Assembly (NCBI GenBank): GCA_964017195.1
Contig: OZ024897.1
Coordinates: 31,954,036-32,018,035, forward strand
Direction of reading: 5' to 3'
Source of the DNA: Siderastrea radians
Taxonomy: Eukaryota; Cnidaria; Anthozoa; Scleractinia; Rhizangiidae
Length of the DNA stretch: 64,000 nt
Positions 7,801 to 56,876 of the stretch are shown piece after piece (the stretch's first letter is position 1; the number at the start of each line of letters is the position of its first letter). The position numbers and the translations under genes are program-made. The notes under the pieces were generated by a model. It saw only the letters and a list, made by a program, of their open reading frames with translations. It did not search any database and was not told the origin of the DNA.

Positions 7801-8722
7801 AGACGAGAAATTGGAAAAGGAGTCTACGATAAGACAGATCGAGCGCCTGAATACTGAAAGCTCTGATGTTTCTAAAGCCGGTTACGACTTCCTGGATCTT
7901 CCGGACGATGTTTCAAACATGGAAGTTTCCGAGGGAGATTTGCCTTCTTATGACCAAATTCCAGGTTTCCGTGAAGATGAGGTAAATTCAGTAAACATTC
8001 GAAAATCTCATGTTTCCACGAAGAAGGGGTGGGATGCGGACGATCGCACAAAGGCAATTTCTGGTAAGACTCCAAACGTAAACCTAGATGTTGGTTTGGG
8101 AATGACTGGGCCTGAGGACGATTTCGCGACTCGACTCAGGCTCCGGAAAAAGACTAAACGGTCATTACATCATCACCGTCATTATCATCACTACTGGCGT
8201 CCACGCTACTTCCATGCAAGGTCATATCAATTTTTTCCTTACTACGACTTCCCAGACGAACAGGAGCCTTTCGAACCTATACCACGAATATCACAGTTCT
8301 TAGACTTCCCCAGGTTTCCAACTCCAAAACGATTGCCAAGATTTCCGATGTCACTGATGACTGAGCGGTTTATTCCTTATCCCCACCTTCCTAAGATAGA
8401 AGAATCTTTTCCACCTCCATTAGAAAAGTTAGAGCGTTTGCCTGAACCACCGCCCATCCCTCAAGCTATTTTAGACCGAGAGGAAACTGGGACTCGGGAA
8501 GCAGAGCCCGTGGATGAGTGGGCCCCATTACCAGAGCCTGTCCCGGCACCGGAGCCCCCGCCAATACCTGAACCCCCTCCAATACCAGAACTGGCTCCTA
8601 TTAAAGAAATCCCTCCTATTCCAGAACCCCAGGCAAAGACTCCTCCGAATTTGGACCCCAAGAAGACATTTGGCACTGGCAAAAGTAATGGCGGAGTGAA
8701 AAAAAGTACTGGGGGCATTTAA
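4838..8722 (+). CDS. secreted proline/histidine-rich protein, multi-exon, unrecognised family
   Basis: Hand-built model: exons 4838-4934, 5953-6018, 6308-7374 and 7709-8722 (about 747 residues). Exon 1 starts MFPESFGATHL and ends in a hydrophobic stretch (STLLFFLILFE), a likely signal peptide, with a GTAAGT donor in phase 1. The next two exons also join in phase 1; the last junction is phase 0 (donor ATG|GTACGA, acceptor TTTCCACAG). The third exon has spaced repeats of a Ser-Arg-x-Pro-Ile-Pro-x-Pro type (SANPIPHP, TPLIPLPH, SRFPIPRP, SRNPIPHP), about 30 residues apart from 6763 to 6970. The last exon has an acidic segment, a dibasic run (KKTKR), a His/Tyr block near 8160-8260, then PEPPPIPEP repeats to the stop. 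No family recognised. The small second exon and the 7374 donor are the least certain. It may be an extracellular matrix, mucus or skeletal organic matrix protein (inference). Confidence 0.6.
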
Positions 8723-10355: not shown

Positions 10356-13300
10356 TTACACGAAAATTAGAGTCGGCGAGAGCTGAAGAAAGTGTATGAG
10401 AGTTGAAGATAACCCGTAAGAATTGAAGGTCAAGTAACAGCGAGGAGACTTAACGAGAGACTGGACTTCTAGAGAACATGAGAGTCGATGAGAGAACGAG
10501 AGAAGTGAACCGAGAGTGTCCGAGAGTTGACGACTCATCAAGTCCTCGCCTTCTTTTGGCTTGAAGCTCCTATGCACTCGTTTGTCTGCTAACAATCATC
10601 GACCGATGATCATTTACACGCTTCCAAAGAGTTTGAACTCTATTCAACTCTCGGCAACTCTCATTTTCGCCTTCCCAGCTTAGAATTCCTTCATTCCCTT
10701 CCCCTGAGTAGCCCTCCTCGCGTTTTTACGAGAACCCGTAAAACTCACCAGCCGTCGAGTTACTCACCGTCTTTTTTATCCATCCCACGACGAGTTTCAT
10801 CTGAGAAAGAGAACATTACCAGAATCAGTTCCAATATAATCCTATCATTTTTCTGCTAATTTATCTCCTATATCTCCTGGACTATCTCTCCTGGGTCGAG
10901 AGGACGGATAGATGCACAGATCTTCCTCTTCTTTTTTCATGCCCCTGTTTCCTCTCCATACATAACAAAAACTGATACTCACAATTCCAAAGGAAGTCCA
11001 TGATCTTGTCCGGAACTTTAAGGCCTCGTTTATGAGCTTCAGCGACTTCTAAACCAATAATAAAATAGGAACAGAAATGTTAGAAAACATAGATGGCGAA
11101 ATCGAGAAATCGGACAAGAAAGACACGTTTTACTAGCTCGGCATTCTGCTACGTTTTCTTAACGTCAGATACGTCAGTTTTTCGGGTTTTCGTTGACGAG
11201 TGGTCAGTGGCTTTTACTCTTGGTGCCTTTTATTTTTGTTTCGTTCAGATCATCAAATTTAGACACACGCTAATCCATGAAAGTTCAAGAAAACGTCTTG
11301 TGCCCAGAGTATTCGGAGACGCTTTTGTTAGTTGATAGCCTCTTACTTGATTTTATTTTCTCTGCCAACTTGTCCATTAGGTATCGTTTTCGCTTCTCTG
11401 CGTCTGTCAAACCTGCGACAAAAACAGTATTTTTTAGTTGTCATAATAAAAACTGATACTCTAAACCCTCCCGATCGCCAGCTTCAAATACACTCGTCCG
11501 CTTGATAACAAATTTCGTTTTGATTACACTCAAGTCACTACCTATTAGAAGCTAGCAATTTTAAGCTTGAATGTTCTAGGCTTAAATCTTCAAGACGTCG
11601 GCAGACCGCAATGTAGCTCATACATACTGACTCGTACCGTCTTTTCCGCGAATTAAATCCTTTGTTTCTTTATAGTTCAATTGTTTGTGCACTTCGTTGT
11701 ACGAGCGAACGGCGGTATCTGCAACGAAACCAAAAGCAGATGGACCTGGTTACAGGGTCGTTCGCAGAATACTCCTCAAATTATTAATCCCTCGATTTTT
11801 TCCTCCAGTGCTATGTTTTGTGGAGAACAAAAGAAGAAGAAGAAAAAGAAGAAGAAGAAGAAGAAGACGAAGAAGAAGACGAAGAAGAAGAAGAAGAAGA
11901 AGAAGAAGAAGAAGAAGAAGAAGAAGAAGAAGAAGAAAAAGAAGAAGAAGAAGAAGAAGAAGAAGAAGAAAAAGAAGAAGAAGAAGAAGAAGAAGAACAA
12001 CAACAACAACAACAACAACAAAAACAACAAGAAGAAAAAGAAGAAGACGAAGAAGAAGAAAGCCAACAAGAAGAACAACAACAACAACAACACTGAACAA
12101 AAACAAAAAGAAGAGCAGCAACAAGAACAAGAAGAAGAGGAGAAGAAGGAGGCAGAGAGGGAGGAGAGGGAGAAGGGGATTTATATATGTACCTGGGTTG
12201 ACAGGAGGAGGCAATTTCCCTGGGACCTTTACAGGCTCATATCCTGTTTAACAAAGATAATTATTTTTTAGAAAATCCAATGTGACTATAGTTTAACCAA
12301 CATGCAATGTGAGTGGAACCATAAACTTATTATACTTAAAAAGCTGTTTAACATTACTTTCGAATTTCTGTCTACCTTTTGTATTGCTAACTGTTGAATC
12401 TGTGGATAAAATCCTCAACTTTGATCATCCAGAAGAATTCTACTAAGCAATGCTTTCCAGCGGTGCTACTTGCTTCAAGCGTAAACTTCTTATAACAGAT
12501 GGCTGTTGCCTCACCTGGAACCCAGCTTCCTCTGGAAAGTGCAGTGCGTTCGGTTTTAGTCATAACGCGGTCTGGATCTGAACAAGATAACCAAAACAAA
12601 ATGCTATTTTACCTCAATAGTTATTATTATCGTATAGCCGCAAGACAGTGGGATTGTCACCCCAGGAGAGCCCGGACGTCCGAAGACTTCCGAAGATGTC
12701 CCGACGAGTTCCGAACATAAAAGCTAAGATATTCTCGAACGCTAGTATTATAACAAGGTCGATGCGCTTGGCGAGTTAGGCCTATTTCGGCCTATTTTAT
12801 TATTTTCCTCAAATTGGAATTACGCAGTTAATGGTTTATTTCATATACAAAGTAGATGTTGATTAAATTTATGTTTCATAGGTCTATTTAGCATATTCGT
12901 GAGTGAGGCGTGAAAAATTACTCTTAATTGCTTGGGCGGATCAGCCCCGCAAAGGTAAGGCTCACTTATAAGAAGTGAGAGTTGCTCTAACATGAACATC
13001 TTACCTTCAGGAAGCCCTCTCAAGCCTTCGAGTGGGTCAGGATTGGCTAGAAATCCTCTGCGATTCCCGTCAGAATCACCGTGATCTGAAAAGAAGACAA
13101 GTCAGTAATAAAATAAGACGCAATAAGTCGATCAAGAGAAAAGCTTACTCATGTAATAAGAAAAACTCTAGCGATGAAAGGGACAAAGACAAAATCCGAG
13201 TCCCCGGTGGAAGTCGAACTTATGAGCTCCCGCACACCAGGCAAACGCTTTAAAGGGAACCTCCACTGTTATCTTAAATTGACCTAAAATTTTGGAGATA

Positions 13301-16300
13301 AAGCCTATGTTTTAATTCTTCTAATAAGCTAGCAAGTGAAGAAAAAATTTTGTTGTACCAAAAAATTGGACATGAATACCACCCATTTTCGCTTTTGAAT
13401 TTCTCGCTCGTTAGCATATTGAATTTTTATGATGTCATGCGGGTGCCATGTTGTTGCATACAAAAGTAAGTTGCTTCTTAACAATAGTGGCAACCGTATG
13501 ACGTCATAAAATTCAAAATGGCAGCACGCTGGAAATTCAAAAGCGCAAATAGTTGATATTCATGTCTTACTTTTTGGTACACTAAAACTTTCTTTCCGCT
13601 TGTTAACTTAAAGAATTGAAATTTAGACTTTATTTCCAACAGTTTAACGTCAATTTGTTGTAACAGTGGAGCCTCCCTTTAACCACTGAGCTATGCTCGT
13701 GTGTAGCTAAGACATGTTTATTAGGTTCATATATGACAATGACACGTGTCCTGCACAGAAGCAGAAGTGTCTAACGAGAACCGTTGTTATACCAGCAAGG
13801 AATATTGAAACTAAAGGGCAAAGGTTGCTTCACTTATTTTTTACATGTTGAAATAAGAAGCGCTTCTTGGTCAAAAAAGCGATTCTCTCGACTTACGAGG
13901 GCTTCCGTTTGGAACAGCACTTGGAGTAGTCTCCCACGCAGCCGTTTTTAGTGGCGTCACGCAACGTTGCGTGACGCCACTAAAAACGGCTGCGTAGGAG
14001 ACTAGATTTGGAGGCACACCTGCATAAATCCTTTTCAAGACTTCAACTGGGTCAGAATGTGGTAGAAATCCTCTGCGGTTCAGTTCGTCAGAATCAACTG
14101 AAAAGAAGAAAAGGGATGACGTAATTGTCAGTTGGAATACCGAGATACTTAGGAAAAGATTACTGAGTATTTCATCTTAAAACGGTATACGCTTCTTTGT
14201 CAGCAACAAACATTCTTTCCACTTACGGAAATGACTCGGAGGCTGATCGTAATTCTTGCGATAGGTGACATCTGAAAATGCATAGGAAATAATAAACACA
14301 TACACGCAGGTCGGGGTTGAGTTGTTTGCGGTTTCTATAGAAACTGGTGATGCGTTAGTGCTGACGTTTAGGGTAAACAATGTCACTTATTTAAATTCAG
14401 ATGATATCAAAGTAAATTGTTTCATTCTGCTTATGGACCTGATTCTAACATTTCAGTCTATGATCGAAATTCTACTGAAACAAATTGAAAGCTTTAAGCA
14501 GCACTTTTATCTTGTGCTATCCACAAGGTGGTTGTATAACTTGTTCTTACAGGATCATTCTAACTATGAACCATGCCTAGAATGTGCTCCTCCTTACGTG
14601 AGCTGATAAACAGCATCTTCATAAGTCATACGGCATCTTTGTAAGTCAGACTCCATAAGTCATCTCCCCTCCCCCTCCCCCATCATCTATCTTTCCTACT
14701 CCTTTGTCCCATTGGTCGCTCTATTTACTTGCCCGAAGTTTCCAATGTTCTCCTAGTCCAAGATAGCCGCTGAGAAAAAACCGCGGTCACCTAAAATACG
14801 CCTTCACTGCGGGCTAAACACTTTTGATTGCGCCCCCCTCCTCCCCGCGTCATTTAGCTACGCATCTGGATAAGACTACGTTATTACTATTGAATGTCGG
14901 TCCTTCTTCTCTAGCCTCCCACGCAGTCGTTTTTAGGGGAGTCGTATTACCCTCCTCCCCACAAACGCCAGCTTACCGGATTTACTTGCGAGACAATCTA
15001 ACCAATCACCATTGAGGCATTGTTTGACGATGACCAATCAAATTAATCGTTACAACGTACGCTTCTGTATTTCACATCTGTATTTCTGTATCGGGAGGAG
15101 GCAGGAGCCATAATCGGGGACGGATCCATCCCCGATTATAGCTCCTGGAGGAGGGTAATACGACTCCCCTAAAAACGAATGCGTGAGAGGCTTCTTCTTC
15201 TCAGGCGTATCTTTAATTTTGCATTCTCAGTTTTCGATGGATTATTGTAATTTTTCAAATGTCACAAAACTTCGCTTACCAAATGTCCTCCTGTTAGGAG
15301 CTTCGGGAAAAACTGACAACAACAAAAAACAGATATCAATGAGATCTTCTTATGAGATTAGACAACATTTGAAAGAGAAAGACGTCGTCTAATTATCTCA
15401 GTACCTAACGTTGTCCATGTGACTCGATTTGATTCTCTAAGATGAGGTGCTCAGTTGCGCCAATGGGTTAGGGTTAGCGGAACTAAAATATGGAACACCT
15501 CCCGTTGAAACTGAGGAGGGTTCAGGAATTAACAAGGTTTAAGTCTGGCCTTAAAAAGCTTTTTAAATCTAGCTGAATTTACCCCAAACGCTCACAGTAA
15601 TTGAGTGGTACTATGTTAATACTTTTGTAATCTGAAATTTTGTATTTTGTAATATGTTATTTAGAGCAGTTTTCAATTGAGTGTCGAAAGTAATGTTGTG
15701 TTTGCTTTGGTTTTGCTTTACTTCGCTCTCTGATTGGTTCTAAAAGCTCGTGCCACTTTCTCAACCAATCAGAAGTAAAACCAAAACCAATCGTGACTTG
15801 CTCGCACGCGTTTTCCCGCGCTTAACGTTAATTACTTGTATTTGCTTCGATTTCTGATTGGTTCATTTTGTGTTTTGCTCTTGTTGTGATTGGCCAGAGT
15901 AATTACTTTGGTTTTGGTTTTACGACACTCATTTGAAAACCGCTCTATATGTAAATTTATGTTAAACAGAGCCCCATTCAAACCAGCCTCGCTGAACTGG
16001 GCACCTCTGTCTAAATATTGTTGAAATAAAATAAATAAAGGCTGACTAAGTTAAATACAAAATGTGCGAATTTGGTGAGGCACTTTTCATAGCCATTAAG
16101 ATTCGTAAATTTCATAAATGCTCAGTACACATATGAGTGCCCGCTAGGCAAATGCGTTTTCCTAATACTGAAATTGTAATGTCGACGCTGGTAACTAAGT
16201 TTACGATACTTAGGAAATGAACACTTCTTATATTAGCCCCCACCATAGAAGAAGGACCCGAGGAAGCTACAAAAGCTATCACCATAGTTTCCACGTCTTG

Positions 16301-19300
16301 GTCTCTGTAGTACTTACATGGTCTACGTGGGGGGTAACCGTATTTTAAATCGTCATCTGTGAAAACACGAACAATAACGTATTAAAAAGGAACTTTTACT
16401 GATTGACACTTAAAACTGAGATGAAAGAAATAACATTTAGCCAGTAACCAATCACAGGGAGCCCTCGCATCAATTTGTTTTCCTGTGTCTTTCACAAGTG
16501 GCGGCCATTTTGAATAATTTATTCGCGGTTAGACAGTGTGAGGTCTGGAACAGAGAAACCACGAGTTCAAACCGGAGGTTCGGAGACTGCTCGGAGATAG
16601 TGGTCGCGTGCCGAGAATTCCGAAGGCTTCTGGGTTCTAGACTCCCATTCAAAACGGCGCTATCGGTTCCCGACTCCACTTGAGCCTGACCACGTAGACT
16701 AAAAATCAAAATGGCCGCTTTGAGAAGCGATAATTCGACAGACTCGTACCCAGTCGCTATTTGTGAGTCTGGGGAAAAGGAAGAGAAAATTGGATTCTAT
16801 TGAGGCGCACGGGGTGACATGGAAAGGGGCAAAGGAAAAATAGCGCCAGCAAAAACCGCCTGCAAGCAGGTTAGAACGATTGAGGTCAGCAAACGTAAAA
16901 TAAAAACAAAACGCGTCCGTAGTTCAAAACTTCAAAAATATGCTAGCGCGGTAATGTAAACTCAAAACTTCAACAAGATAGCTTACGAGAGAAATCAGCT
17001 CTAATATGACACCAGTTACTTACCGTATGTCCTTCTAGCTGGAAATTTAGAATGATCTTAAAGAAAAAAAGATGTTTGTATTAGTTGGTAAGTGGACATC
17101 GATTTTCGTGAGCTAAAAACAAAACAAAGTAAGAACAATCACTTACATGGCCTTTGGAGGGATGGAAGATTGTCGTATTTCATGTAGTCTGCATCTGAGA
17201 CAAAAAAATTACAAATCAGTAAAATTGCTTTCCAGCTAGCTTTCGGGAAGAATAAATTATGCACTTGTTTACAGAAAGCTCAATAAACCAATAAAAGAAA
17301 ATGCGTCTGGGTTTTGTTTTTTTGTTTTTTGTTTTGTTTTTTTGCCAGACACTTAGAGTCACGTCGCTTAAATGGATTTAGATTAGGGATGTTTCCCGGT
17401 TATTTTGCCGATGGGTTGTTGAAGGCTTTCTGTCAAAGTCAGCTAGCGCGTGTAATGCTCGAAAACTTCATTCTTCGTCAACTCAAGTACTTTTTGATGA
17501 GTTTGAGACTATCGAATTAACTAATGAATATTTATATTCGTATTGTTCAAAAAGCTGATTAGAGCTGATGAACCCGGGTTTAAAAGCTAGCCGTCATATG
17601 TTTCAAAACGTGGTCCATCAACCAAACTGAATTCAAATTGATGCTATTTCGTAGGTTCGGTCAACGCTGCTTTGAAAATAACCAGCAATGTAAGCCGTCT
17701 ACGTTCGTCAATGGAGGCCTTTACGGGTGCAGGGTTAGGAAGCTGATAAGGGAGGAGACGAAAGACTCCAGATTATTTGTTTACTCACGTAGTCTTGGGA
17801 GTGACGGGTAGTGTGAATTAGCAGCTTCTGATTCTAAAATAAATAGATAAATAAATAAATAAATAAGGGGCTAGATGACAGAATCAAAACTTATAAAACC
17901 AATGGCTTTAAACAAAATTAAGAGAACCAATTCCAACTCTGGTGACCAGAGATTTTTCTGGTGGTCTTTTGTGAAACGATCGTTTAAAAGGATAACTCAG
18001 CAACCGCTACTTTCTGCTATTGTTCATAAACTGTTTTGACGCCTTCGAAGGAAATAAGCGGTAAGAAATGAGGCCTGCCCCTAAAAAGCACCCTATCTCC
18101 AAAAGGGCCCTCCCTTAAATCTCTCCGGCGAAATAAATACGGTAAGCGCCCCGGGCTGTAAATCGAATAATTACGGTACTTAGCGCCGTGTGAGAGACGC
18201 CTCTAGCACCCAGAGTAGCTAATCTCGAAAAGAAAAGCGCATTTATGTTACTTTACCCAAAAGCCGTCTGAAAGCCTCAGTGTCCTTGAAGTCTGAAAAA
18301 AGAGAATCCAGTCAAACGCTTGGTTAGTGGATAAAAATCTGCCTTATTTTACCTTTTTGCTTTAGCGTTTACTTAGACGAGTAAGCTGCGCGATTTCGGT
18401 GAAATTGACACAGACAACTTTGGACTGGTGGTCTTTTTGATAACCATTTGTCATCTAACAAAGGGCTCGCCAACTTTCTATACGCTAATACTGAAGCGGA
18501 TAAATCTACCCCGAGCTTACATAGTCAGCAGTTTTACCTGGTTTGGCTGGCTTCTTAGAGAACTCCGCTGCCGGATCTGCTGAGGCTGGAAAGCAGAATT
18601 TACAGACATTTAGCCTGCTGTATGATTCAGAAGCGATTTTATCATGTAAATTCTAACTTTTGAGTCTTGAAAATCCCTCTCAATTTTAATGTTTGTCTTG
18701 CAAAATCTTTCAACATGAAATTTCCAAAGAAGCTCCAACGTCATGTTCACGCGCCCTTCAGAGTAAAAGGGTTACGAAATCCCTCAAAATTCAACAAACC
18801 GCGGTCGTTTTCTACCCGAGTGAAGTCAGTGTGAGCGAGAGTTCCCAAGAACTTCCGCTTTTGTAAATTTTTTTTGTCTTGGCCATTCAAATGAAAGCTA
18901 TTAAGCGGTACTTTACTGTGATAATATCTTTGTTTTGTTGTTGTTGTTGTTGTTTATTTTTTGCTTGAATATTCTGTCATGCGGGAATAGTTTAAGTAAT
19001 TTTACAGTGGGTCAATGTACTTACTATCTGTGGCCTTCTTATCCGTGTCTGCTTTTGTCTCTGTCGTCGCATCTTTCTTTTGTTCAGTGTCTGTTACAGC
19101 TAAAAAACACCAAAAATTTTAAAATCTTTCACCCTTTTTTAAACTGTCACTCAAAGAAGGTAAACTGAAACGATATTTCTGTTGAACGTTTGGCTAGTTG
19201 GCTAGTCTTACTCTTTTCCAAAGTCTCAAGCTTTTCTTTAGGGACTTCCCTTGTTTTATCTGTAAGCTCCTTCGGTACCTCTGAAGATAAACAGAATATA

Positions 19301-22300
19301 AAATAAACAATTCATCTCTTTGCATGGTATGCCTTTATCTTTGAATGATGGCTTTAATTTCTCTCAGATGAGAGAAATAAAAATTAGAGCAATCGAGGAC
19401 TAAAGAATTTACCAGTCTCTGTCTGTTTGACGATGTCTTCCTTCGTTGATGTGGCCTGGTCGCTCTTAGTCTTTGACGCATCTGAAAACAACATAACAGT
19501 TGTCAATAACAAAATATTGACGAATAGAAAGTAAAAAAAAAATCTATGGGTGCGCACGAGAGTTGGTGAAATTTAGTCCAAAAATACATGATGCAAAACC
19601 ATGTATTATAATTGCCACAAAACATGACGTGCACTTGACAGCAGGAGAGAAATATAGAAGGCACGAGCTTCTTTCTACATTTCTCGAGTGTTCTCAAATG
19701 CACGACGTGCTTTATGACAAAATAATACATGGTTGTACCCTCTATGTGCTTTATGACACAAAATTTGAGCTAAAGCGAAAACTGAAATGAAACGAGTTCT
19801 CAGTCCATTCTGGTACACAACATAGAGAACGTCCGTGAAACCAAAAAAAAAGATTTAATTAGCAAAGCAACGGTTCTACACATGCGTTATACATTTTGGT
19901 ACATTTCTTTGCTGTCTTCGGCAAAACAACAACGTGAATTGACAAATTTTAGATTTTAGAGAGAACTCGAACGTAGGACGAGAATTTTCCTTTAACTGTC
20001 AGACCTTGACGTCCCAACGGATTCAGCTGCAGAATAGTTCGGCCCCAGCTGACCAAATGCAAGAGTTGAAAAAGACGCGAAAAAGTTCAAAATCGTTTTT
20101 TAGGCTTTCACTATAAAAGGCGTTTTACATTATAAGAGACGTTTTACGTTGCTTCCAGACTAAACGGAAGCCTTACCTGAAGCATCATTTTCCTTAGCGG
20201 TTAGTTCTTCTAGTTCTAAAAAAATAAAATTGACGATATTCAGTTATAAACAACCCAAAAATATTTAACATTAAAGAGTAGAGATTTGTTACCTAGTAGC
20301 GGTTAAAGGAAAGGGCAGATCCAGGGGGGGAGTGGATTGGGTCACTAGCCACCCCCTCTTTGGGGTCGTTTAAACTTGAAAGGGAACTAAACTATCACAG
20401 AGGCGATTTTGTCTCGGATTGTTCCGATATGGTCCTGTCAGGTCAGCCACCCCGTTTCAAAAATCCTGGATCCGCCACTGAAAGGAGCGCACTTCCAGGG
20501 ACGTTAGCTTACGGGGTACACAGTGAAAGCGGACCAGTTACCATAACCAAAAAAAAAAGGTTAAAGTTTGAATCTGAGATAACCGTATTTTTACTGGTCA
20601 CAATAGACTTTTAATTATCGGTTAAATTAACCATTTGCTTTTCAGTTAAAATAACCGTTCTTGAAAGGTTGTTTTAACCAAAAAATATGGTTGTTTCAAA
20701 CATAATCATACCCGCGTTTTAAACCATTTGAAATAGGTTGTTATTACCCGACTTTTTTAGGTTTAAATGACCTTTGATATTAGGTTATGTAACCCATGGA
20801 TTTTGGTTAAAATAACCATTTTGTGTGGTTGTATAACCATTCAAAATGGTTATAGTAACCTCAGTTTTTTGGTTCTGTCAATGAATCTGAGGTAACCAAT
20901 TAAAAATGGTCAAGGCTGAGGTAACCAATTAAAAATGCCAAGGCTTTTCGTTATAAGGCATCTCCCAAATAGTGTAAGATTCCGGCAGTTCCAAACATCA
21001 AAGAAGTAGAAGTTGAACAAAACTCCGTTGTGTCTTTTTGATCTAGAAATTATCCAGATGACTTGAGAATGAGGTTATAATCAATTTCTTTGGACGATTA
21101 ACAAAATCGCTTTTGACAAACATAGAAAAGCATAAAACAAATCGAGTACATTTATACAAAAAAAAAACGCCCTAGTAAACACCTTTCTGCAAATGACTTT
21201 TAGGTCTTTCAAATATTTCGGCTAAATTTAAAGTCGTTTTCATTTATTTCAGTGTTTGCAAGAAATGTGTTTGTCTCAGGAACTCGTCCAAATCAAAATA
21301 ACTTAGCGTGAACATTCTGACGTAGGTTTTGTAGTGTTATGGATGGAATTCTTAAATGAAACCTTTCAAATGGTAACTGAAAACCGAGCTTTTCTCTTTA
21401 AAATCGATTCCCCTCTTTCTTATTATTTTCTCAGTGTTTGGGTGTGCCTTGTGACATTTCGCGAATATTTTCCCGCAAAATTCTGTAAACTAATCAATTG
21501 TCTGAGGGCCTCTTCATATGAGCCCGGTTTCCGAGATCTCGCCTCACTCCTATTTCCTTTGTAAAAATTGCGATGTGTTCATATGAGAAGGCGGGCCAGC
21601 CCGGTTACCGAGATCTCGGTTTCTACAACCGAGATCTCGGCAACCGGGATGAAAATTTTCTCATATGAACACTCCAGCCCGGTTACCGGGATGAAAATGT
21701 TTTTGACAAATTAGCTTCGCTTTCGAAACTGGGCGGCCAAAATAGCATAATTTTGCCGTGTGTGCATTTCCACTTCAAAAGTATTCGAATTAGCTTTATT
21801 TTAGTAAAGTTACAAGAGTCGACAAAGCTATGATAGTCGCGAACAATACTTGTTTATGTGGCGCCATTTTGGTTTTGTTTCTTGAATTTCATCCCGGTAA
21901 CCGGGCTGAAATTTCCCATATGAACAGACGACAAAATTCATCCCGGTAACCGAGCCAGCCCGGTTACCGGGATCATATGAAGAGGCCCTGAATCAGGGTG
22001 GAAAAGGGGATCGAGTTTTTGCAGGAAGTAAACGGAATTATAACCACTCAATTTTGGAATTTTCTTTGCAAATTTTTGAAAGCGTCGCGGACGTAAAGAT
22101 TTCAGGCTACGTTAGTTACATCACGGTAGTGCTGCATTTATTTGTACGCAATCCGCCGATGATGTTCGCAGTGACACATTCCGTGATATTAGAGATTTTC
22201 TCCATGGTGTGTTTTTCTTGGCTAATGTTAAGTCAACAAAATTGCTTCTGGGTAAATAAGTTTTAGAGTTTAAAACAGATTATGCTCTTTAATACTTGGC

Positions 22301-23754
22301 ATTGAAAATATGTATTATCGAGCGCTTTCTATAATAAACAAGCACTACCAAGTGTTGTCACCTCCGAACGCAAGATAAGGATTATACTATAGGCTATAGT
22401 TAAAACCGCTGAATTAAATGTTCGTTTCTCGCAAGTTGAAGAAAGATATAAATCACATTTATTCATAAGAATAGCAACGTTCCACCATAAATACTCGTGA
22501 AAGTCACACCTATAGAAAATTTCTTTACACTAACATAAACATTTGTGTTAGATATTTCGATAGGTCTAGACTAGACAATAATGCGCCTGACTGACGTAAT
22601 TCAAAATCTTCTCCGCCTAATTGTGCGATATTTTTGCTAAGTTTGCGGTAAGCACAGGGAGGCAAGCATAGCATTTCATAGCGAAGCAGAAAAATTCTCG
22701 TTGATTTTAACAAAAGCTGACAGACATATTGAAGTATTTTCAGTCTAGCACGCGCCGCGCCTTCGGATTTGACCCAATCAGAATGCGTGAAGAGCCACGC
22801 GTGGTAATTACATCCCGCGCGCTTCCCTCGCAGGTCAAAGGTGACATAATTATCTAAGAGATTTACTGTATTTTCCTGCTCTGCGGGTTGCAACCGTTTA
22901 GAACATTTAAAACAAAGCGAAAGGAAACAATTCTAGTACGGTAGTTAACAGATTGACTTCGATTGAATTCAGTGATTGTCTTTAAACAAAGACTTTCTAT
23001 ATGTGAGATTTATGGACCTCTCTGAGTTGGAAGAAGTCTGCTATGGTTGTGCAGGCCGCGACTATAGCCGCTGTATTATACCTTTTCAAAAATATGTAAT
23101 TTAACGACCAGATTGTGCCCGATTTTGGTCCTAACTTAGAAACTCATTTCAGTGATTCTTACAACTGTACTATATACAATTTTGCACTATGTAATAGTCA
23201 GGTTAATTTCTAAACCCGCCTAAAACAAAAATGGTTATCTTGGTGTGTAACTATGTACTCAAAGGTGCGAACCACGCACGTATGATTGGAATGAATATTT
23301 TGTAAAAAGAAGTCTCTCAACAGCACGTACAGTCTTATGTGGATTTAAGCACAGCAAACTCATATCACAAAACAAAACCGTCAACAGAGCAATCTACATC
23401 AAAGAGATACTGCCAAGGATAATTTTCGATAAGCACTTCTATAACGAAGACAAAATGTGTTGCGCTGTTTACAGTGTTATCGCCATCTGTTCCAAGCTCT
23501 AAAATAATGGCACACAAATGGAACACATTAGTGAATGGCAAACAAGCGGAGGAAGAAAACACTTCTTCCTTAACTTTTGCTCCCTACTTCAGTCTTTCGT
23601 TTTCTATGATATATAAGAGATCGAACATTCAACCGTTCAAACTTCTAGCTTCTAACGACTCACCTTTCTCGATCTCCTCAAGGCTAAGTTCTGGCGATGG
23701 GCGCGCTGAGACCAGTGCTAACATTAAAATCAAGATAAATCGACTGCACAACAT
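10356..23754 (-). CDS. secreted protein encoded by 21-23 symmetrical phase-1 micro-exons
   Basis: Exons in transcript order: 23754-23664, 20215-20177, 19481-19413, 19280-19212, 19099-19025, 18585-18538, 18292-18257, 17833-17789, 17194-17147, 17038-17024, 16356-16318, (15300-15280), 14271-14227, 14097-13897, 13085-13005, 12577-12515, (12399-12376), 12243-12193, 11718-11638, 11412-11347, 11048-10983, 10800-10768, 10585-10356. Bracketed exons are less certain. The sum is about 500 residues. Exon 1 begins MLCSRFILILMLALVSA, a textbook signal peptide, followed by RPSPELS. Every internal exon is divisible by three (15-201 nt) and every intron is phase 1 with GT-AG ends, so the frame survives any exon skip. 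The N-terminal third is Lys/Glu/Thr/Asp-rich and likely disordered; the middle is rich in Tyr, Pro and Arg; the C-terminal part has Lys/Arg-rich helical segments. No Cys pattern or known domain. The last 55 or so residues come from an ACTCTCG-rich repeat and the true end may differ. Confidence 0.72.
11822..12098. repeat. (GAA/AAG)n microsatellite, nearly pure purine, with CAA interruptions
   Basis: About 280 bases of GAA/AAG triplets with short AAC/CAA runs at 11998-12030 and 12073-12092. On the minus strand it is a long CTT/TTC pyrimidine tract inside the intron just upstream of the exon starting at 11718. All long poly-Lys, poly-Glu, poly-Arg and poly-Leu frames here are microsatellite artefacts. 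Confidence 0.95.
13176..13716 (-). repeat. tRNA-like SINE head split by a MITE
   Basis: On the minus strand 13716-13679 carries an A-box-like TAGCTCAGTGG and the sequence resumes at 13250, where a T-arm-like AAGTTCGACTTC lies near 13215. Joined across the inserted element they give one tRNA-like unit. The B box is imperfect, so this is more likely a SINE or pseudo-tRNA than a working tRNA gene. Confidence 0.45.
13254..13678. mobile_element. MITE flanked by TTAA (piggyBac-type target), about 425 bp
   Basis: The ends AGGGAACCTCCACTGTTA and the inverse of TAACAGTGGAGCCTCCCT are terminal inverted repeats. TTAA flanks both sides (13250-13253 and 13679-13682), the target duplication of piggyBac-superfamily elements. 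Further inward the arms still match (for example TTTGAATTTC... on one side and its inverse on the other). No transposase. It sits in an intron of the micro-exon gene. Confidence 0.7.
13897..14097 (-). CDS. exon of the micro-exon gene carrying an in-frame 78-bp palindrome
   Basis: This is the longest internal exon of the gene (201 nt; the others are 15-81). It is open throughout in the gene's frame and ends at a GTAAGT donor in phase 1. A 78-bp near-perfect palindrome (13927-14004) lies inside it and adds exactly 26 codons. An alternative donor at 14019 (GCAG|GTGTGC), also phase 1, would give a 78-nt exon without the palindrome. The first part (DSDELNRRGFLPHSDP) is similar to the next exon, 13085-13005 (GDSDGNRRGFLANPDP), so the two arose by exon duplication. 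Confidence 0.65.
13927..14004. repeat. 78-bp near-perfect palindrome inside a coding exon
   Basis: Two 39-nt arms meet at GCAAC|GTTGC (13965/13966) with one mismatch. The outer words (AGTCTCCCACGCAGCCGTTT) match the end of the MITE at 14913-15192, so this is a miniature foldback of the same family. Its ends read TAG...CTA, compatible with a TA target. Confidence 0.8.
14913..15192. mobile_element. MITE with about 45-bp inverted repeats, 'agcctcccacgcag' family
   Basis: The left end AGCCTCCCACGCAGTCGTTT and about 25 further bases recur inverted at 15148-15192. A second, smaller palindrome (GGCAGGAGCCATAATCGGGG and its inverse) lies near the right end at 15098-15150. No coding capacity. It lies in an intron of the micro-exon gene. 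Confidence 0.7.
15663..15946. mobile_element. interspersed inverted-repeat element, copy 1 (second copy at 38620-38902)
   Basis: The ends are GAGCAGTTTTCAATTGAGTG and the inverse of CACTCATTTGAAAACCGCTC. The body has several CCAATCAGA/TGATTGGTT words. A copy in the opposite orientation lies at 38620-38902, including the TTTTCCCGCGC core. About 284 bp, non-coding. Confidence 0.7.
20520..20945. repeat. cluster of GGTT-N-AACC short palindromes
   Basis: Around ten imperfect 12-14-bp palindromes of the form GGTT-(4-6)-AACC occur one after another (for example GGTTAAATTAACC, GGTTGTTTTAACC, GGTTAAAATAACC, GGTTATAGTAACC), spaced about 20-35 bp, bounded by 'gaatctgag(a/g)taacc' words. It is non-coding and lies in the first intron of the micro-exon gene. 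Confidence 0.7.
21504..21990. mobile_element. foldback MITE, 'gagggcctcttcatatga' family
   Basis: The ends GAGGGCCTCTTCATATGAGC and its inverse at 21964-21990 enclose several GCCCGGTTACCG(A/G)GAT repeats in both orientations and GAGATCTCGG palindromes. About 487 bp, non-coding, in the first intron of the micro-exon gene. Confidence 0.75.
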
Positions 23755-23928: not shown

Positions 23929-24206
23929 TGTCCTGTTCTCTATCAGCTATCTATAACATCTTTTGGCAGTTTATTAATAGTTGTCATAATTTATGCATCG
24001 CGCCGACACTGGAAAGACTGTCGACCGCGCGCGCGAGAAGAAATAAATTTCTTACAGGGTCTTGTTTCTTCGTAGACCGCAAAACAGTCGCTTTTTTCCT
24101 CTTAAATTCGAGTTCCATAAAATGCTGGTCTCCCTCCCAAGTATTTTGTTAATGACCAAACTTGAAATATGGGAAAATAAATAATCAATCAATCAATCAA
24201 TCAATG

Positions 24207-24238
<32 letters not shown>

Positions 24239-24306
24239 TTTTTGAGGCGAAAAAAGTCTCTCCCCAGCCTCCCTCCCTGCAATCTCACTCCCAATCTCAC
24301 TTTTGA

Positions 24307-24553
24307 TAGCGCTAAAATAAAGTTATGAATGTGCAAATGAAACTTGACTTACCTCAACTTGGGGTTGTTTTTGCGTCTTGTGTTTAATTCGGGCGCAAAT
24401 TCGTGACAGTTTCAAGCGAGTTTTCCGCGTTATTAGCTGGTGTTGTTTCTCCGGAATAAAACGAATTGCGCCCGAATTACACACAAGACACAAAGACAAC
24501 CCCACGTTGAGGAGAGTTATTTTTTTCCACATTGATAACTTTATTTTAGCACT
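24307..24553. mobile_element. MITE with long inverted repeats
   Basis: TAGCGCTAAAATAAAGTTAT at the left end is matched by the inverse of ATAACTTTATTTTAGCACT at the right. The arms continue inward for about 90 bases (TTGTGTCTTG-type and GGGCGCAA words), meeting near 24420. Non-coding. Confidence 0.7.
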
Positions 24554-25577
24554 GTAAATGGTTTGAACCCAGGAGTCATATCATAGGTCGGTAAATTATG
24601 ATCGTCCGGGTGAGTGTAGTCCTGAGAAGGACTGTTTGTGATGACGTTGACTGACGTTTCGACAACCTGAGCGGAAGTCATCATCAGAGTCAAGTGAACT
24701 GTGAATCGTCAGTAGATTTAACTTGAGTCTCTGGTAGTTGTCCTGATTTGTCGACGATCTCGTGATGTTATTGATCGTCTGTCAGTTGCCGTGATGTTAT
24801 TGGCTGTGAAGACTGTAAAGCACCAATCACAGACGATCATAATTAACCGACCTTTATGTTAGCCTTTTGAAAACCAAACTAAATCTCCCATACAAAGTCT
24901 GTAAGTCGAGTCTGACTACAAGTTAGAGTCACGTTCGAGCTTTCAGATAGCGAGCTTGGGCCGCCTGTGGATTCGAGAACCAATTCACGCAAAAATATGG
25001 ACTCTCGTTTTCATGTTACCATTGACTGAATTTAATGCCAAAGCGACATTCTGTCGGAGAGATTAACAAGCCTTTTTATAACAGCCTCTCTGGTGGAACA
25101 AAGAAATTTTGTTGATTATATTGATACCCTCTGAATAGAAGGCATAACAAACAGAAAAAGGATAACTTTAAAAACTAGGGAAGGCCGGAAAATGCCTGAA
25201 GCAAGAAGGTGTGACATTGCGATATTTTTGACTGACTATTTTTGTCTGCTCTACCCCGCCCTGCGTATGGCCTACGGCATAAAATCTGACTGGAGATCAC
25301 CAGGCTCATGATGTTTCTATGCAAGGTGGGATAGGGAAAGTTAAGAAATGAGAATGTGAAAAGAAAACTGTACAGATATTAAACCTGTAATAGTGGTACC
25401 GTGTTTGGGCTAACTGGTGTTCAGATAAAAATAAATCACTCGAGCTTTTACCTGGACCAAAATAGATAGTTAGATAAACAAACAAACAAACAAACAAACA
25501 AACAAATAAATAAATAAAGGGGTGCAGGGTGGTCGTAGAAGGGTTGGTCTTGAGGCGTGGGCTCGCGTACTGTTCTG

Positions 25578-25640
25578 ATGTGATGATGTGATGTGATGTG
25601 ATGTGATGTGATGTGATGTGATGTGATGTGATGTGATGTG
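25578..25640. repeat. (TGATG)n pentanucleotide microsatellite
   Basis: A run of about 12 copies of the five-base unit GTGAT, preceded by (AAAC)n and (AAAT)n at 25470-25518. Frames across it give artefactual His/Ile/Thr/Ser repeats. Confidence 0.9.
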
Positions 25641-26165
25641 TGAGATCGTTCTCTCGGAGCGTGGCTCCTTATGTAAAAACTGCAAGTCTTCTACGGGAGG
25701 CAGATACGCTTCTGGGGAGGCTAACCCTGACCAAATTCAGATGTTCTAGCCTCTGAGCTGCGGTTTTTTAACAGGATTAAGATTTTCATGTCTTCAGTAA
25801 TTTGTTTCAGGCGGAACGAAGATTATTTTAAAATTTTCCATATGAATTTATATGTTAACTGGATTTTCCGACTGTTCGGAAGCGTTTATAACAACAAGCA
25901 ATCAATTGACAAACAAACAAAAAAGGCCTATACTATAGAACACAACTTCCTTCTTATCCTATCCGTTTCCGATAAGTCTTCACCAAGCGGTTGTTTTGAT
26001 TAAGAGACTGAAAAGGTAGGACTGTAAAACAATGCCAAGAATTTGTATATCTAATACCATGGTGTCTGGATATAGAAACACTTGATTGAATACTGTCAAT
26101 TGTCTTCACACAAGGTCAGGTCATAAGTGCCATAAGCAAAAGGATTGAATTGTTTTGTTTTGTCT

Positions 26166-26268
26166 TATAAAGAGGATTCGTCGCTTGGAGTCTGTCACAA
26201 GCAAATTTTCTCACAGACTTCTGTCGCTGTATACATAGACTGCTGAGGTGATTTCCAACAAAAATCAG
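26166..26268 (+). promoter_or_regulatory. possible TATA box and non-coding first exon
   Basis: TATAAAG at 26166-26172 is followed about 97 nt later by a strong donor (AAATCAG|GTAAGG, 26268/26269). No ATG opens a frame before the donor, so any exon would be a 5' leader. Which gene it would serve is unknown; no partner exon was found nearby. Confidence 0.25.
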
Positions 26269-29200
26269 GTAAGGTCAAGCTCAACTTTAAGGATTCGCGC
26301 TTTTTAAAAGAAATAACATTTTAAGCCCCCAATTTCCTTCCCAGAGGTAATCACTCCAGATATACTTCTAACTTTCTGAGTCTTTTATAAAATCCTCAAG
26401 CGTGAAAATTCAAATGTAAGCTATCGAGACTGGGTACTTTTCAGTGGTACGGCCTACTCACCAACATTTTACAAAATCATTTTAAGATTTTCCCTGCTTG
26501 GAAGCTCTGAGAACTCACCAAAACTGAGAAGGTGAACAGCTTGTTAGTTTTGCCCGGAAGTTTTGTCAGTCGATCGTTAGAGTATGAGATGGAGAAGAGT
26601 CCTTCCTTTCCTCATGCTCTAAGGTCAAAATATGCGCACGCGAACAAGTTTTCAAGCGCACACGGTTCTCATGTCAGTGACCATGAACGTGAAAATTCAA
26701 GATAGAGATTGCTAGTAGCTTAGTTCGAACGCCTAGGCGAGCTTTTTAAACGCCCAGTGAATACGTTCCAAAATCGTAACTTAGAGAAGCACTATAGTGA
26801 AAGGTCACTGAAACAACAAACAAAACACGATCGCTGCTATCTCTCAGGAAGAATCGCTGACTACTACTTTTCTCATAACCAGTTTGGGCGGTGTTATTAA
26901 GGAAACACGATGTTTGTTCTTCAGCTTCTTGTCTCGCGACACTCAATTGTGTTTACAACGTGAGATCATTCCAAACGTTTTCCAGATTTAGGGAAGTTCA
27001 CGGATAAGCTCTTGATCTCAAAGGATAAAATTCAGTTTCATCGCGGCGGAAATGTCTAAGCACTCAACAGTAATTAGATAAATCATTCAACAGTTACGCA
27101 ACTAATTTTTACATCAGCTTGCCTCAGATTTAACTCAGTAGTTATAATCTGATGAAACACAACACAATAAAGAAGACCGGCAGAGAAGAGAAAAGAAGAG
27201 AAAAGAATAGACAAGAAAAGAAAAGAAAAGAAAAGAACGTATAACAACTTTTTCGAGCTGAATGGACAAAGACCGTAAGCAAAATCGCAAAACTCACTAG
27301 TACTAATAAACAAATATACCATGGATTTTCTTTCTTTCTTTCTTCTTTCTTTTTTCTTTCAACCTTTTTTTTGAGTAGCTTCTTGTGACTGAAAATGGAA
27401 TGTTTTCCACTAAAAAAGAACATGCCGGAATTGCTTCTCCTGCCTTCGCCAAGCTAATTTTTACAGTACGTTATTTTCAAACCTTGAAATCAAGAATTTC
27501 CAGGTCTGAAACAAGAAACAGTCAACAGAAGAAAGTACTTAAGTAGAGCATCTTTTATTCGAATGGTCAAACCATCTCGAGTTCCATCCTCGGACTCAAA
27601 AGTTTTAACCACGTTATTATTATTATCACGAGCCTGTTACTTTTCATACGGCTTCTAACGCATCAAGACTCCACTTGATCGAAGGGTGAACAGGTACCTA
27701 AATTAACATAATCTTACTACCAATTCCGGCCACAGAAACGTTCGTTCAAACCAAATAACTTGAATAATAATAAAAATATAAATAGGATATATCTTGATAT
27801 AAAACATGTGGAAAAATGTGCTGAAAACTTTTTAATGGAAGACGTTCAGGCATGATATAATCTGTTTAAATCAAAGCCAATAATTAGCTATAAATCCTTG
27901 TTCATTTCACTAATCCTGGTGATTGCTTACTTGGCTGGCTGGAGGCTGGTGATGCGGTGCGATTCGACGTCTTCCTTTAGCACGTATTAAGACAGACGTT
28001 TAATTTAATTGATTTATTTTGTTCCAAAAATACGTCCGCATATTGACAATAAACAAGAATATGCGTTTTTGCCATGCCCCTTTTTCTTAGATAAGCCTCT
28101 TATCTGTGTAAACTGTAATCCTTTGAAGAAATAACCAAGCGTTTCCTGTCGGTCAAGGGCATTTTAGGACGTGTGCGTCAATAGCCACTTTCACTAGTTG
28201 TTTCAATTTTTTGCGCAGATAACCACAGAAATTCTAACCGCGCGCACAGCGCACAGGTATCCCAAGCTCACACTGTGATGAGAACGTCTTGATCGTGTAA
28301 TGGCAAAAATTTTATGGTTTGTGATGCCGGGAGTTCAAATGGTTTACCTGTTTAGAAAAAAATAGGAACTTTGTAAAGAAGGCGATGCCCTAGTCATTCC
28401 AGAACTCCCAGAAAAAAGGACATCTTCAGGGGCTTTTGTTTATTCCCACGAATACGTTCCATTTGATTTCCCACCGGAGTTTCGCTTCGTTTAGTTTGAA
28501 AAGAGTGACTAACTATGACGTCGAAAACTTTTGAAAATGAGTTGTCACGAGATTGCATTTTTTAAGTTATTAGCATTCTTCATCTAGAAATGCTTGATGA
28601 ACAAGGATAATCATACGCATAGTACAAGACACTTACTCATGCACAAAATATGTTAATTCGTGGAATGATATAAATAGCTAATTTTTGGTGATTGCTGAAC
28701 AGAAACAAATATCAAACTTTCAGACGATTCGCTCTTATGACGTCATGTTTTGAGTATCAATAGTATGTGGCTACTACTGGTGTTATAGTTAATCACAGTA
28801 TTGCTGTTTAACTTCAGCTTGTTTTCATTGATGTAAACAAATTTTTGGGTTTCCTTTAAAAAATAATCAAATATAAGAATATCGTAGGATATCACAACTC
28901 AGCAAAGTTTCGAAACCTCCGTCCTATTCACGACAACGTGTTTGGGGAAAGGTTTTCTCATAAAATATATTCACGGATTTTGTACAGATTTGTTACAGCG
29001 TGGCGACCAAAAAACACGACGCGTCAAGTGCTAACTTATCGTTAAAAAGTCTACAGTTTTTTTTATATCATTTGAGAGTGGCCGTAAATTTCAAGAAGTT
29101 GTATATCTGAAAACACAGCCACACAAGCTGGAAAGCACGAGCTGGAAGCTTGTGGAGCTAATACACGGCCCAACAAGCTAAAAATCTAATCTCAAATCTA

Positions 29201-29849
29201 ATCGTGTGTAAATTAATTTGCTTTACTTTTAACGGATCGCCATCTCCAGACGTGAAACTTTTCATGTAAACTAAAATTGCTAATGTTAAGAAAATGTTTA
29301 AAGAAAACCTTTACAGAGTATGCAGAGGTTCTGATTTTCAAGTTCCGATATGACTGTCAGATAAAAACACTGTTTACGTAGTTATTTTGGGTAGGTATAT
29401 TACTTAATATTTAAGACATTCTCTCAGCCTGCGTCAACATCCGGTACTTTCTCTTGTTTTATCAAACAACGGCTAAAAAACGTGTTCTTTCCGGTGGAAA
29501 AACGTCAGAGAAAAATTCTCTTCGTATGCCTTGCGGGCGTATGTTTCTAGGCCCAAGCTCCTGCAGAGTAAATTAATTTTGGCGCCTTGGCGGGTTTAGC
29601 TTCATCTTCGTAATTTTTGTTTGGTTTTCGTAGTCTTCCATTGATTCGAACCGCGTGAAGGCACTAAATGCTGCTTCGAATTCAATATTGACCATTGTTT
29701 TTGAATTTCGTAAACAATGGTCTGTAAGCAAATGAACGATCAAACTAATTGGAATATAATGAGCTTGGTTTTCTAGAGGTGACCAATTATGTTCATTATG
29801 CGGAAAGTCGTATTGGTTCAGTGCGTCTTTTTGGAATATGCTAAAAAGG

Positions 29850-30454
29850 TAGCACGTCGCACAGTCAGTCGCCTTGAGGTGGTTCTTTCGACAGAAAGGA
29901 AGTTATTTCAAGAGAAAATAGTAAAAGTTTATGGGTAAGTGACTAGAAATCAGTGGATTTTACTGTTTTCACAGTGATATGAATTGAATTCAAGCACACG
30001 TGGGGACATTCTTCGCTAAGCTTCTGAACATTCATGAAATCGAATGTAAACTTCAAAGTCTTCAAGTTTCGTTTTGTCTCGCTTTCGTGACGACAGGTCG
30101 TCGCAACAAGCGAGTGTGTATAACTTTCACTTTTATCTCTGAAGAGCTATGTATCTTTTTTATTGAATTCCCAAGGTATTTTAAACTAAAACCTTAATCC
30201 GTCTGGCTCGTCGTTGCGTTGGGCTAGCAGATTATTGTTTATACGCGACAGTTGTGAATGTTCGTGAAAGCACTTAAAACCTGTACAACCACAACTATAA
30301 ATTAATTTTACCCTTTAATTTAAACACCAAAGAACTACTTTAACATTCTTAGGCTTTCGTGCCGTAGTTTTCTCTCTCTTTGGAGCACACAGACAAGTAC
30401 TATTAGATATGCGTTCTGGCAGCGCCACATTAGCTAGTCAGAATATAAGCTCAG
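29850..30454 (+). promoter_or_regulatory. possible 5' leader exons of the LIM gene
   Basis: Two candidate leader exons: one ending at 29934 (TTTATGG|GTAAGT) and one at 30353-30454 (acceptor CATTCTTAG, donor AAGCTCAG|GTAAGC). The LIM coding exon begins at 31178 after TTGATTTCAG, eight bases before its ATG, so upstream leader exons are required. The short frame in 30353-30454 meets a stop right after that acceptor, which supports a leader role. Confidence 0.4.
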
Positions 30455-31185
30455 GTAAGCCTTAATAATTTTACAGCAAAACCTTTGCGAATGTCAGGAA
30501 TTTTGCAGTTTTACATGACTATTTGGGGACTGTGACACACTGTCCGTATTTTTTGGCCTAATTGTTTAAGGGCTTGCACACAATAAAATGAATTACACTT
30601 GAAAAGTAAAAGTGTTTTTTTGTTTTTGTTTTGAAAGGGGAATTATTGGGACGCAATACATTTAAACCAGATGTCACTTTAAAAGTGTCATCAGGTTGTC
30701 ATACTTGAAGTGGCTCTGAAATATTGATGTCATTTTATAAGTGAATTTTTAAGCTCAAGGCATTCAATTAATATCCTTTAACTTTTCAGTAATTTCTGGA
30801 AGATATGAACTGAAATCAAGTTGGTGCAATATCAGTATCTGCTGATGTTTGACAACAACGAATATTTAATTGCAATAATTAGACTATGAGGCCAAATAGG
30901 CTAATTAATCAGCAATAGCTCTGGATGTATTTGTCATTGAAAGTTTTTTTCCTGGTTATCGGTCTTTAATTTAAGGGGAACACTGAAACGGGATACCCAG
31001 ACAAAAGATCTGATTTTAAAGTGCATGAATCTAAAACACCAAAAGAGTTTTATATTTTGATCTTGTTTAAGTTTTGACGGAAAAATTTGGTCAAAAAACG
31101 CTGCAGGTATAAAGTTTTGTGTGTCTTAATTGAGTTATTCAGTGCTTAATACTAAAGTGCTGTTCTTTTGATTTCAGTTTAAAGG

Positions 31186-33182: not shown

Positions 33183-33189
33183 TTCCTGT

Positions 33190-36060: not shown

Positions 36061-36067
36061 GCAAACA

Positions 36068-41529: not shown

Positions 41530-41577
41530 TGCTGTAATTGAGATCTTATTGGGAGACTCTCTTGCATTGGATTTTGG

Positions 41578-41965: not shown

Positions 41966-41986
41966 CAAAATTTTGTGTTTCACGTC

Positions 41987-42022
<36 letters not shown>

Positions 42023-56853: not shown

Positions 56854-56876
56854 ATGGCCTGATACAACGATATTGC

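What the first reader, a model, noticed from the sequence alone, without database searches (positions are those of the whole stretch)
10356..23754. A micro-exon gene: signal peptide followed by 20 or more symmetrical phase-1 exons
Seen: starting from a clear signal-peptide exon (23754-23664), at least 20 further exons of 15-201 nt join in one frame. All are multiples of three and all are bounded by GT-AG introns in phase 1. The chance of so many phase-1 symmetrical open exons in one orientation is very small. Known: this design (signal peptide plus many short symmetrical exons, products varied by exon skipping) is described for the micro-exon genes of schistosomes and relatives. I know of no described cnidarian counterpart. 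Inferred: the gene could generate a large family of secreted peptides by exon skipping.
Basis: partly seen in the sequence, partly recalled or inferred. Interest (0 to 1): 0.88.

Follow-up and report, generated by a model that had tools for sequence, protein, structure and literature searches.

The report
Coral gene of swappable mini-exons
This single-copy gene, whose named relatives all come from stony corals, is cut into a predicted secretion-signal exon, 20 small frame-neutral exons and a likely short last exon, and since nearly every exon can drop out without breaking the reading frame it likely yields a set of related secreted proteins, predicted to be mostly shapeless, whose job is still unknown.

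Summary
Without homology, the best 10 kb holds 15 phase-1-symmetric exon candidates; 40 control strand-windows average 0.40, maximum 3. Of 20 relatives found, the 8 named ones are all stony corals, of two suborders. Among close relatives 8 of 8 internal gaps are whole exon units, and Porites lutea isoforms X2 and X3 differ by exons 13 and 17: exon skipping in relatives. One copy here. The protein has no cysteine after the signal, is predicted mostly disordered, and ends in a conserved helical hairpin. It works like schistosome micro-exon genes but fails their size rule (13% of coding length against about 80%); vertebrate SCPP genes use the same logic in phase 0. Function is inferred only: a secreted matrix-type protein is favoured; a peptide precursor cut at conserved dibasic sites is the main rival.

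The parts
23664..23754 (-). Exon 1, start codon and predicted signal peptide (91 nt), intron 1 in phase 1
   Evidence: aligned in 16 of 17 relatives; same intron place read in P0018/P0019
20177..20215 (-). Exon 2 (39 nt)
   Evidence: 16 of 17 relatives
19413..19481 (-). Exon 3 (69 nt)
   Evidence: 16 of 17
19212..19280 (-). Exon 4 (69 nt), unit missing in P0013
19025..19099 (-). Exon 5 (75 nt), missing with exon 6 in P0017
18538..18585 (-). Exon 6 (48 nt), missing in P0004 and P0017
18257..18292 (-). Exon 7 (36 nt)
   Evidence: 14 of 17
17789..17833 (-). Exon 8 (45 nt)
   Evidence: 14 of 17
17147..17194 (-). Exon 9 (48 nt), first half of cassette copy A
   Evidence: 13 of 17
17024..17056 (-). 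Exon 10 (33 nt), second half of cassette copy A
   Evidence: 9 of 17
16318..16356 (-). Exon 11 (39 nt), first half of cassette copy B
   Evidence: 8 of 17
15280..15312 (-). Exon 12 (33 nt), second half of cassette copy B
   Evidence: 12 of 17
14227..14271 (-). Exon 13 (45 nt), unit skipped in Porites lutea isoform X2
14020..14097 (-). Exon 14 (78 nt), tandem duplicate of exon 15
   Evidence: 9 of 17; 78% over 64 nt
13005..13085 (-). Exon 15 (81 nt)
   Evidence: 17 of 17
12515..12577 (-). Exon 16 (63 nt)
   Evidence: 16 of 17
12193..12243 (-). Exon 17 (51 nt), unit skipped in Porites lutea X3 and Pocillopora verrucosa X2
11638..11718 (-). Exon 18 (81 nt), unit missing in P0020
11347..11412 (-). 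Exon 19 (66 nt), first helix of the C-terminal hairpin
   Evidence: mean identity 0.78
10983..11048 (-). Exon 20 (66 nt), turn and second helix
   Evidence: mean identity 0.76
10768..10800 (-). Exon 21 (33 nt), unit missing in Desmophyllum P0006
9478..9500 (-). Probable last coding exon (23 nt with stop), reads EITTFSH*
   Evidence: 11 of 17 relatives end in SH

Best explanation
It is a single-copy gene, with named relatives only in stony corals, whose 20 internal exons are all in-frame phase-1 cassettes behind a predicted signal-peptide exon, so that exons can be left out or duplicated with hardly ever a broken frame, and it likely makes a set of secreted, mostly disordered proteins that share both ends and differ in the middle. 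Shown by sequence: exon lengths, phases, the joined frame, the exon 14/15 duplication, one copy in this genome at the sensitivity used. Shown in relatives: whole-exon differences, in two cases with the junction residue that phase 1 predicts. Predicted: secretion, disorder, the C-terminal helical hairpin. Inferred: the protein acts outside the cell as a charged, flexible matrix-type protein (skeletal organic matrix, mucus or mesoglea); the constant C-terminal hairpin would be its anchor or self-association part, and the variable middle would set length, charge and the number of repeated units ending in R-R-T-[YF].
For: 20 of 20 internal exons symmetric in phase 1; 15 candidates against mean 0.40, maximum 3, in 40 control strand-windows. 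Twenty distinct relatives over three searches; the 8 with names come from 7 species, all Scleractinia, 3 in Refertina and 4 in Vacatina. Ten unnamed relatives sit on contigs of 1,194-2,259 bases, too short for a gene that spans 14.3 kb here, so they read as spliced transcripts. In the 9 of 13 compared pairs that are 85% or more identical, 8 of 8 distinct internal gaps of 4 or more residues are whole exon units (exon assignment also); a random gap of these sizes has both ends at exon borders in 0.6-3.1% of placements. Skipping exon 6 here predicts codon A|AC = N, skipping exon 4 predicts G|CT = A; P0004 and P0013 have N and A there. The exon 17 unit is absent in isoform models from both suborders, Porites lutea X3 and Pocillopora verrucosa X2. 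13 of 13 genome matches at E <= 1 lie in this locus. No cysteine after residue 18 in 18 of 18 sequences. AlphaFold2 of relative P0001: mean pLDDT 51, C-terminal two-helix stretch 351-400 at 78-91.
Against: No transcript or protein of this species was seen. X2/X3 are database gene models. P0002/P0004, P0010/P0013, P0015/P0017, P0009/P0014 and P0009/P0020 may be different species, so some absences could be genomic loss. Seven of 231 exon joins make a stop, among them skipping of exon 21. In the 4 pairs below 85% identity, gaps of 4, 5 and 10 residues do not sit cleanly on exon borders, and P0015/P0016 differ by a 3-residue gap that I did not count. AlphaFold2 also gives one short confident helix at 131-140 (81), so the middle is not wholly disordered. 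Secretion was judged by eye; nothing tests a matrix role.
Confidence: 0.72

Rival explanations
1. Peptide precursor: the secreted protein is cut at conserved dibasic sites into several short peptides, and cassette duplication or exon skipping changes the number and mix of peptides.
For: Dibasic pairs kept at RR139 (18 of 18), RR181 (10 of 10), RR205 (13 of 13), RK349 and KR350 (17 of 17), KR370 (16 of 17). Outside the C-terminal exons basic residues in dibasic sites are kept better than single ones (0.84 against 0.62, p 0.007; whole protein 0.84 against 0.66, p 0.013). Repeat units of P0001 and P0012 are separated by RR or KR.
Against: No G-[KR]-[KR] amidation site in 18 of 18 sequences; dibasic counts exceed composition in 17 of 18 but by about six at most. 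In the C-terminal part there is no difference between dibasic and single sites (0.82 against 0.81). KR370 lies at the turn of a predicted hairpin. The p-values ignore the kinship of the sequences.
Confidence: 0.22
2. Ordinary constitutively spliced secreted protein: all exons are normally included and the whole-exon differences are mostly species differences or splicing noise without a role.
For: Some compared sequences may come from different species; transcripts that hold most exons exist, such as P0001 and P0002. Several donors score low, which could give noisy skipping.
Against: Two isoform models of one Porites lutea gene differ by two exons; the exon 17 unit is absent in models from both suborders.
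Confidence: 0.2
3. [quoted passage not shown]
For: Signal-type exon, symmetric exons, variants, disorder.
Against: Size rule not met: 13% of coding length in exons up to 36 nt. Profile searches listed only corals among named hits.
Confidence: 0.02
4. Chance open stretches or a decayed gene.
For: Individual exons are short and several splice sites weak.
Against: Homologs through the junctions and the control scan.
Confidence: 0.01

Closest known systems
Uncharacterised coral orthologues (Porites lutea isoforms X2/X3, Desmophyllum OS493_009148, Oculina ACROYT_G009518, Orbicella LOC110052068, Pocillopora LOC131790679, Montipora capricornis, Acropora LOC141895593)
   Same: Same gene by alignment: same exon units, same C-terminal hairpin where complete
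   Different: Named only 'uncharacterized' or 'hypothetical'; number of cassettes and exons differs; the Orbicella model lacks the C-terminus. None of five identifiers searched occurs in the paper library
Schistosome micro-exon genes (MEGs)
   Same: Signal peptide, small symmetric exons, variants by splicing, disordered products in the case studied (PMC5825161, PMC4350168, PMC10399815; passages)
   Different: Exons of 6-36 bp make about 80% of MEG coding sequence, and there are many MEG families; here 33-81 nt and one copy, kept across two coral suborders
Vertebrate SCPP genes (e.g. ameloblastin)
   Same: One intron phase throughout, so exon duplication, deletion and skipping keep the frame; ameloblastin is a secreted matrix protein (PMC6732285, abstract start and passages)
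   Different: Phase 0, not 1; vertebrate family; mineral role shown there, untested here. Disorder of SCPP proteins is recalled
Tropoelastin (ELN)
   Same: Recalled, confirmed by no call: small phase-1 symmetric exons, cassette skipping, secreted repetitive matrix protein
   Different: Coral protein is highly charged (K, D, E, R total 38%); tropoelastin is hydrophobic (recalled)
Tb-MEG1 of the myxozoan Tetracapsuloides bryosalmonae
   Same: A cnidarian gene called a micro-exon gene, product in and on the parasite (PMC7923790, PMC8481699, passages)
   Different: Sequence and exon structure not seen; no comparison made

Membership tests
Micro-exon genes (MEG) | About 80% of coding sequence in symmetric exons of 6-36 bp (PMC5825161) | tested here: not met
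   158 of 1212 nt, 13%, in exons up to 36 nt; 4 of 20 internal exons
Micro-exon genes (MEG) | Symmetric exons | tested here: met
   20 of 20 internal exons multiples of three in phase 1
Micro-exon genes (MEG) | Signal peptide | tested here: inconclusive
   Hydrophobic N-terminus FILILMLALVSA read by eye and kept in relatives; no prediction program was available
Micro-exon genes (MEG) | Protein variants by exon skipping | tested here: inconclusive
   Seen in relatives: Porites lutea X2/X3 models and others; no transcript of the window's species
Micro-exon genes (MEG) | Sequence kinship with a named MEG family | not tested
   No direct comparison with MEG sequences; Pfam scan best E-value 0.015, none of them a MEG family by name in the 25 of 26 listed
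SCPP genes | Virtually all introns phase 0 (PMC6732285) | tested here: not met
   Introns 1-20 phase 1, intron 21 phase 1 if exon 22 is right
SCPP genes | Frame-neutral exon duplication and skipping | tested here: met
   Exon 14/15 duplicate; whole-exon absences in relatives
Peptide precursor (prohormone type) | Amidation-type G-[KR]-[KR] sites | tested here: not met
   0 in 18 of 18 sequences; that some precursors lack them is recalled, so not decisive
Peptide precursor (prohormone type) | Repeated units flanked by conserved dibasic sites | tested here: inconclusive
   Units and conserved RR/KR present, counts only moderately above composition
Coral skeletal organic matrix proteins | Found in purified skeleton | not testable with these tools
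   No proteome data; five identifiers found in no paper

The most novel reading that the evidence does not exclude
Stony corals evolved their own phase-1 counterpart of the vertebrate SCPP genes: a stony-coral-only gene that sets the make-up of the secreted, perhaps skeletal, matrix by regulated skipping and lineage-by-lineage duplication of frame-neutral mini-exons.
Probability: 0.25. Interest if true: 0.78.

Novelty: new variant of a known kind. Interest (0 to 1): 0.52.

Why it matters
A secreted gene built of frame-neutral mini-exons is described for parasite MEGs and for vertebrate mineral-tissue SCPP genes. A single-copy coral gene with the same logic in another phase suggests that this route to tunable secreted proteins arises repeatedly. 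Its apparent limit to stony corals, including Desmophyllum pertusum (a deep-water coral without algae, recalled), makes a role tied to the coral body plan or skeleton directly testable, and says a role in symbiosis is less likely.

Tried and rejected
Extra exons that looked spliced by eye: those near 16768 and 23497 are not multiples of three; one near 16009 (27 nt, frame-neutral, weak donor) has no homolog hit among the 18 best remaining hits listed. A search for further copies of the cassette motif in this gene found none with homolog support.

Full report
WHAT WAS CHECKED. The region was read on the minus strand. Twenty-one exons were located and joined: exon 1 of 91 nt (23754-23664) and 20 internal exons of 33-81 nt, median 49.5. 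All 20 are multiples of three, each lies between AG and GT, and each join splits a codon after its first base. A probable last exon, 9500-9478, is entered in the same phase and reads EITTFSH*: 11 of 17 relatives end in SH, and of 26 candidate acceptors listed downstream only this one reads to SH*. This exon is weaker than the others, since it rests on seven residues. The coding sequence is then 1212 nt, 403 residues. Introns 1-20 are 90-3448 nt, median 425.

MORE THAN CHANCE. With generic splice matrices (values recalled, not trained on this genome) and no homology, the best of ten overlapping 10-kb windows of the target strand holds 15 non-overlapping open phase-1-symmetric exons of 24-120 nt; 40 control strand-windows (20 stretches of 10 kb on the same contig, both strands) have mean 0.40, sd 0.62, maximum 3. 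Two other settings gave 19 against 0.68 (maximum 3) and 11 against 0.23 (maximum 2). The thresholds were chosen after the exons' own scores were known. Within the window, 19 of 29 candidates on the target strand were of this kind against 11 of 54 elsewhere, overlaps counted. With the strictest setting only 1-3 candidates remain on the target strand, because several of its splice sites are weak on this scale.

RELATIVES. Three searches gave 20 distinct proteins (17; P0018 and P0019 new; P0020 new). Eight carry names, from seven species: Porites lutea (two isoforms), Desmophyllum pertusum, Oculina patagonica, Montipora capricornis, Orbicella faveolata, Pocillopora verrucosa, Acropora palmata; all seven are Scleractinia, three in Refertina and four in Vacatina. 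Twelve are unnamed. Ten of these come from the source 'lgn' (which I take, from memory, to be assembled public sequencing runs) on contigs of 1,194-2,259 bases; because the gene spans 14.3 kb in the window, they read as spliced transcripts. P0018 and P0019 differ: they hold exon 1 and then run on in other sequence after EIEKG, which fits genomic DNA with intron 1 at the same codon. Fourteen of 17 relatives cover 95-100% of the query; P0011, P0012 and P0017 cover 55-68%. No named relative outside stony corals was seen, but distant ones may be missed. In the window's own genome (805 Mb) all 13 matches at E <= 1 fall in this locus, so the gene is single copy at this sensitivity.

EXONS ACT AS UNITS. 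I compared 13 pairs of relatives (10, 3). Nine pairs are 85% or more identical; they hold 8 distinct internal gaps of 4 or more residues, and all 8 are whole exon units: exon 13 and exon 17 (Porites lutea X2 against X3), exon 6 (P0002, P0004), exon 4 (P0010, P0013), exons 5+6 (P0015, P0017), exon 17 and a two-exon cassette (P0009, P0014), exon 18 (P0009, P0020). The cassette is a repeat whose exact ends the alignment cannot fix. The assignment to exons agrees with the automatic table (P0020 and the cassette apart). For gap sizes of 12-34 residues 0.6-3.1% of random placements have both ends within one residue of exon borders. Phase 1 predicts the new junction codon: leaving out exon 6 here gives A|AC = N, exon 4 gives G|CT = A; P0004 has N and P0013 has A at these places. 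Desmophyllum P0006 lacks the exon 21 unit against P0007. Against this reading: in the four pairs under 85% several gaps (4, 5 and 10 residues) do not sit cleanly on borders, and except for the two Porites lutea models the pairs may be different species, so that absence could be genomic. Of 231 possible exon-exon joins in the window 224 stay open and 7 make a stop, one of them the skipping of exon 21.

DUPLICATION. Exons 14 and 15 are 78% identical over 64 nt. Exons 9+10 and 11+12 look like two copies of a cassette that ends in R-R-T-[YF]; relatives P0001 and P0012 carry three such units or more, Acropora and Montipora about one, reduced.

MECHANISM. Shown: a gene whose every internal exon is a frame-neutral cassette, and relatives whose products differ by those cassettes. 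Inferred: this coral's splicing also leaves some exons out, giving secreted proteins with constant ends and a variable charged middle. I favour a matrix-type role because the product is predicted secreted, without cysteine, mostly disordered, repetitive and seemingly limited to stony corals; this step is untested. The main rival is a peptide precursor: dibasic pairs are kept at RR139 (18 of 18), RR181 (10 of 10), RR205 (13 of 13), RK349 and KR350 (17 of 17) and KR370 (16 of 17), and outside the C-terminal exons dibasic sites keep their charge better than single ones (0.84 against 0.62, p 0.007), but in the C-terminal part they do not (0.82 against 0.81), dibasic counts are only moderately above composition, and no amidation signal exists.

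COMPARISON. Schistosome MEGs: about 80% of coding sequence in symmetric exons of 6-36 bp (PMC5825161, passages), up to 75% of the gene in 3-36 bp exons (PMC10399815, abstract and passages); secreted or anchored, varied by splicing (PMC4350168, passages). Here 13%. By the looser 51-nt definition (PMC4317164, start of abstract in a listing) 11 of 20 internal exons are micro-exons. SCPP genes: virtually all introns phase 0, so duplication, deletion and skipping keep the frame (PMC6732285, passages). It works like both and, by the tested features, belongs to neither. A myxozoan cnidarian gene has been called a micro-exon gene, Tb-MEG1; I did not see its structure. My searches of the held library listed no paper on this coral gene or on such a design in corals; one search showed 12 of 270 papers, and most subscription papers are not held.

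VERDICT. Observation confirmed, interpretation partly supported, new variant of a known kind, function unknown but testable.

Noticed in passing
window 14913-15192 and 13927-14004: Two inverted-repeat elements in introns 12 and 14 with related ends (46-nt arms 96% complementary; 39-nt arms 97% with no spacer), MITE-like; end sequences 88% alike over 32 nt.
   Followed up: partly
window 11777-12172: Long CTT/GAA-type microsatellite in intron 17, just after exon 17, whose unit is absent in isoform models of two coral genera; whether it affects splicing is open.
   Followed up: no
window 10768-20215, internal exons: Exons whose units are missing in relatives (4, 5, 6, 13, 17, 18, 21) have lower donor scores on average than the other 13 (2.6 against 4.3, worked out from the scores; no test made, different species).
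   Followed up: no
window 6226-8719, + strand: Two neighbouring open frames of 449 and 352 residues, Pro/His/charged-rich, no Pfam match.
   Followed up: partly
window 36840-37754 and 39350-40060, + strand: An Asp-rich and a His/Pro/Tyr-rich open frame without Pfam match, possibly secreted matrix-type genes.
   Followed up: partly
   Followed up: yes
window 54884-63318, - strand: THAP-domain ORF and a type-B DNA polymerase (DNA_pol_B_2) ORF beside an unmatched 511-residue ORF, as in a mobile element; described only.
   Followed up: no
window 21505-21989: Repeated CCCGGTTACCGGG-type motif with inverted copies in intron 1.
   Followed up: no
window 24000-44000, - strand: Five of nine splice-like candidates upstream are also phase-1 symmetric; not examined, may be chance or another gene.
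   Followed up: no
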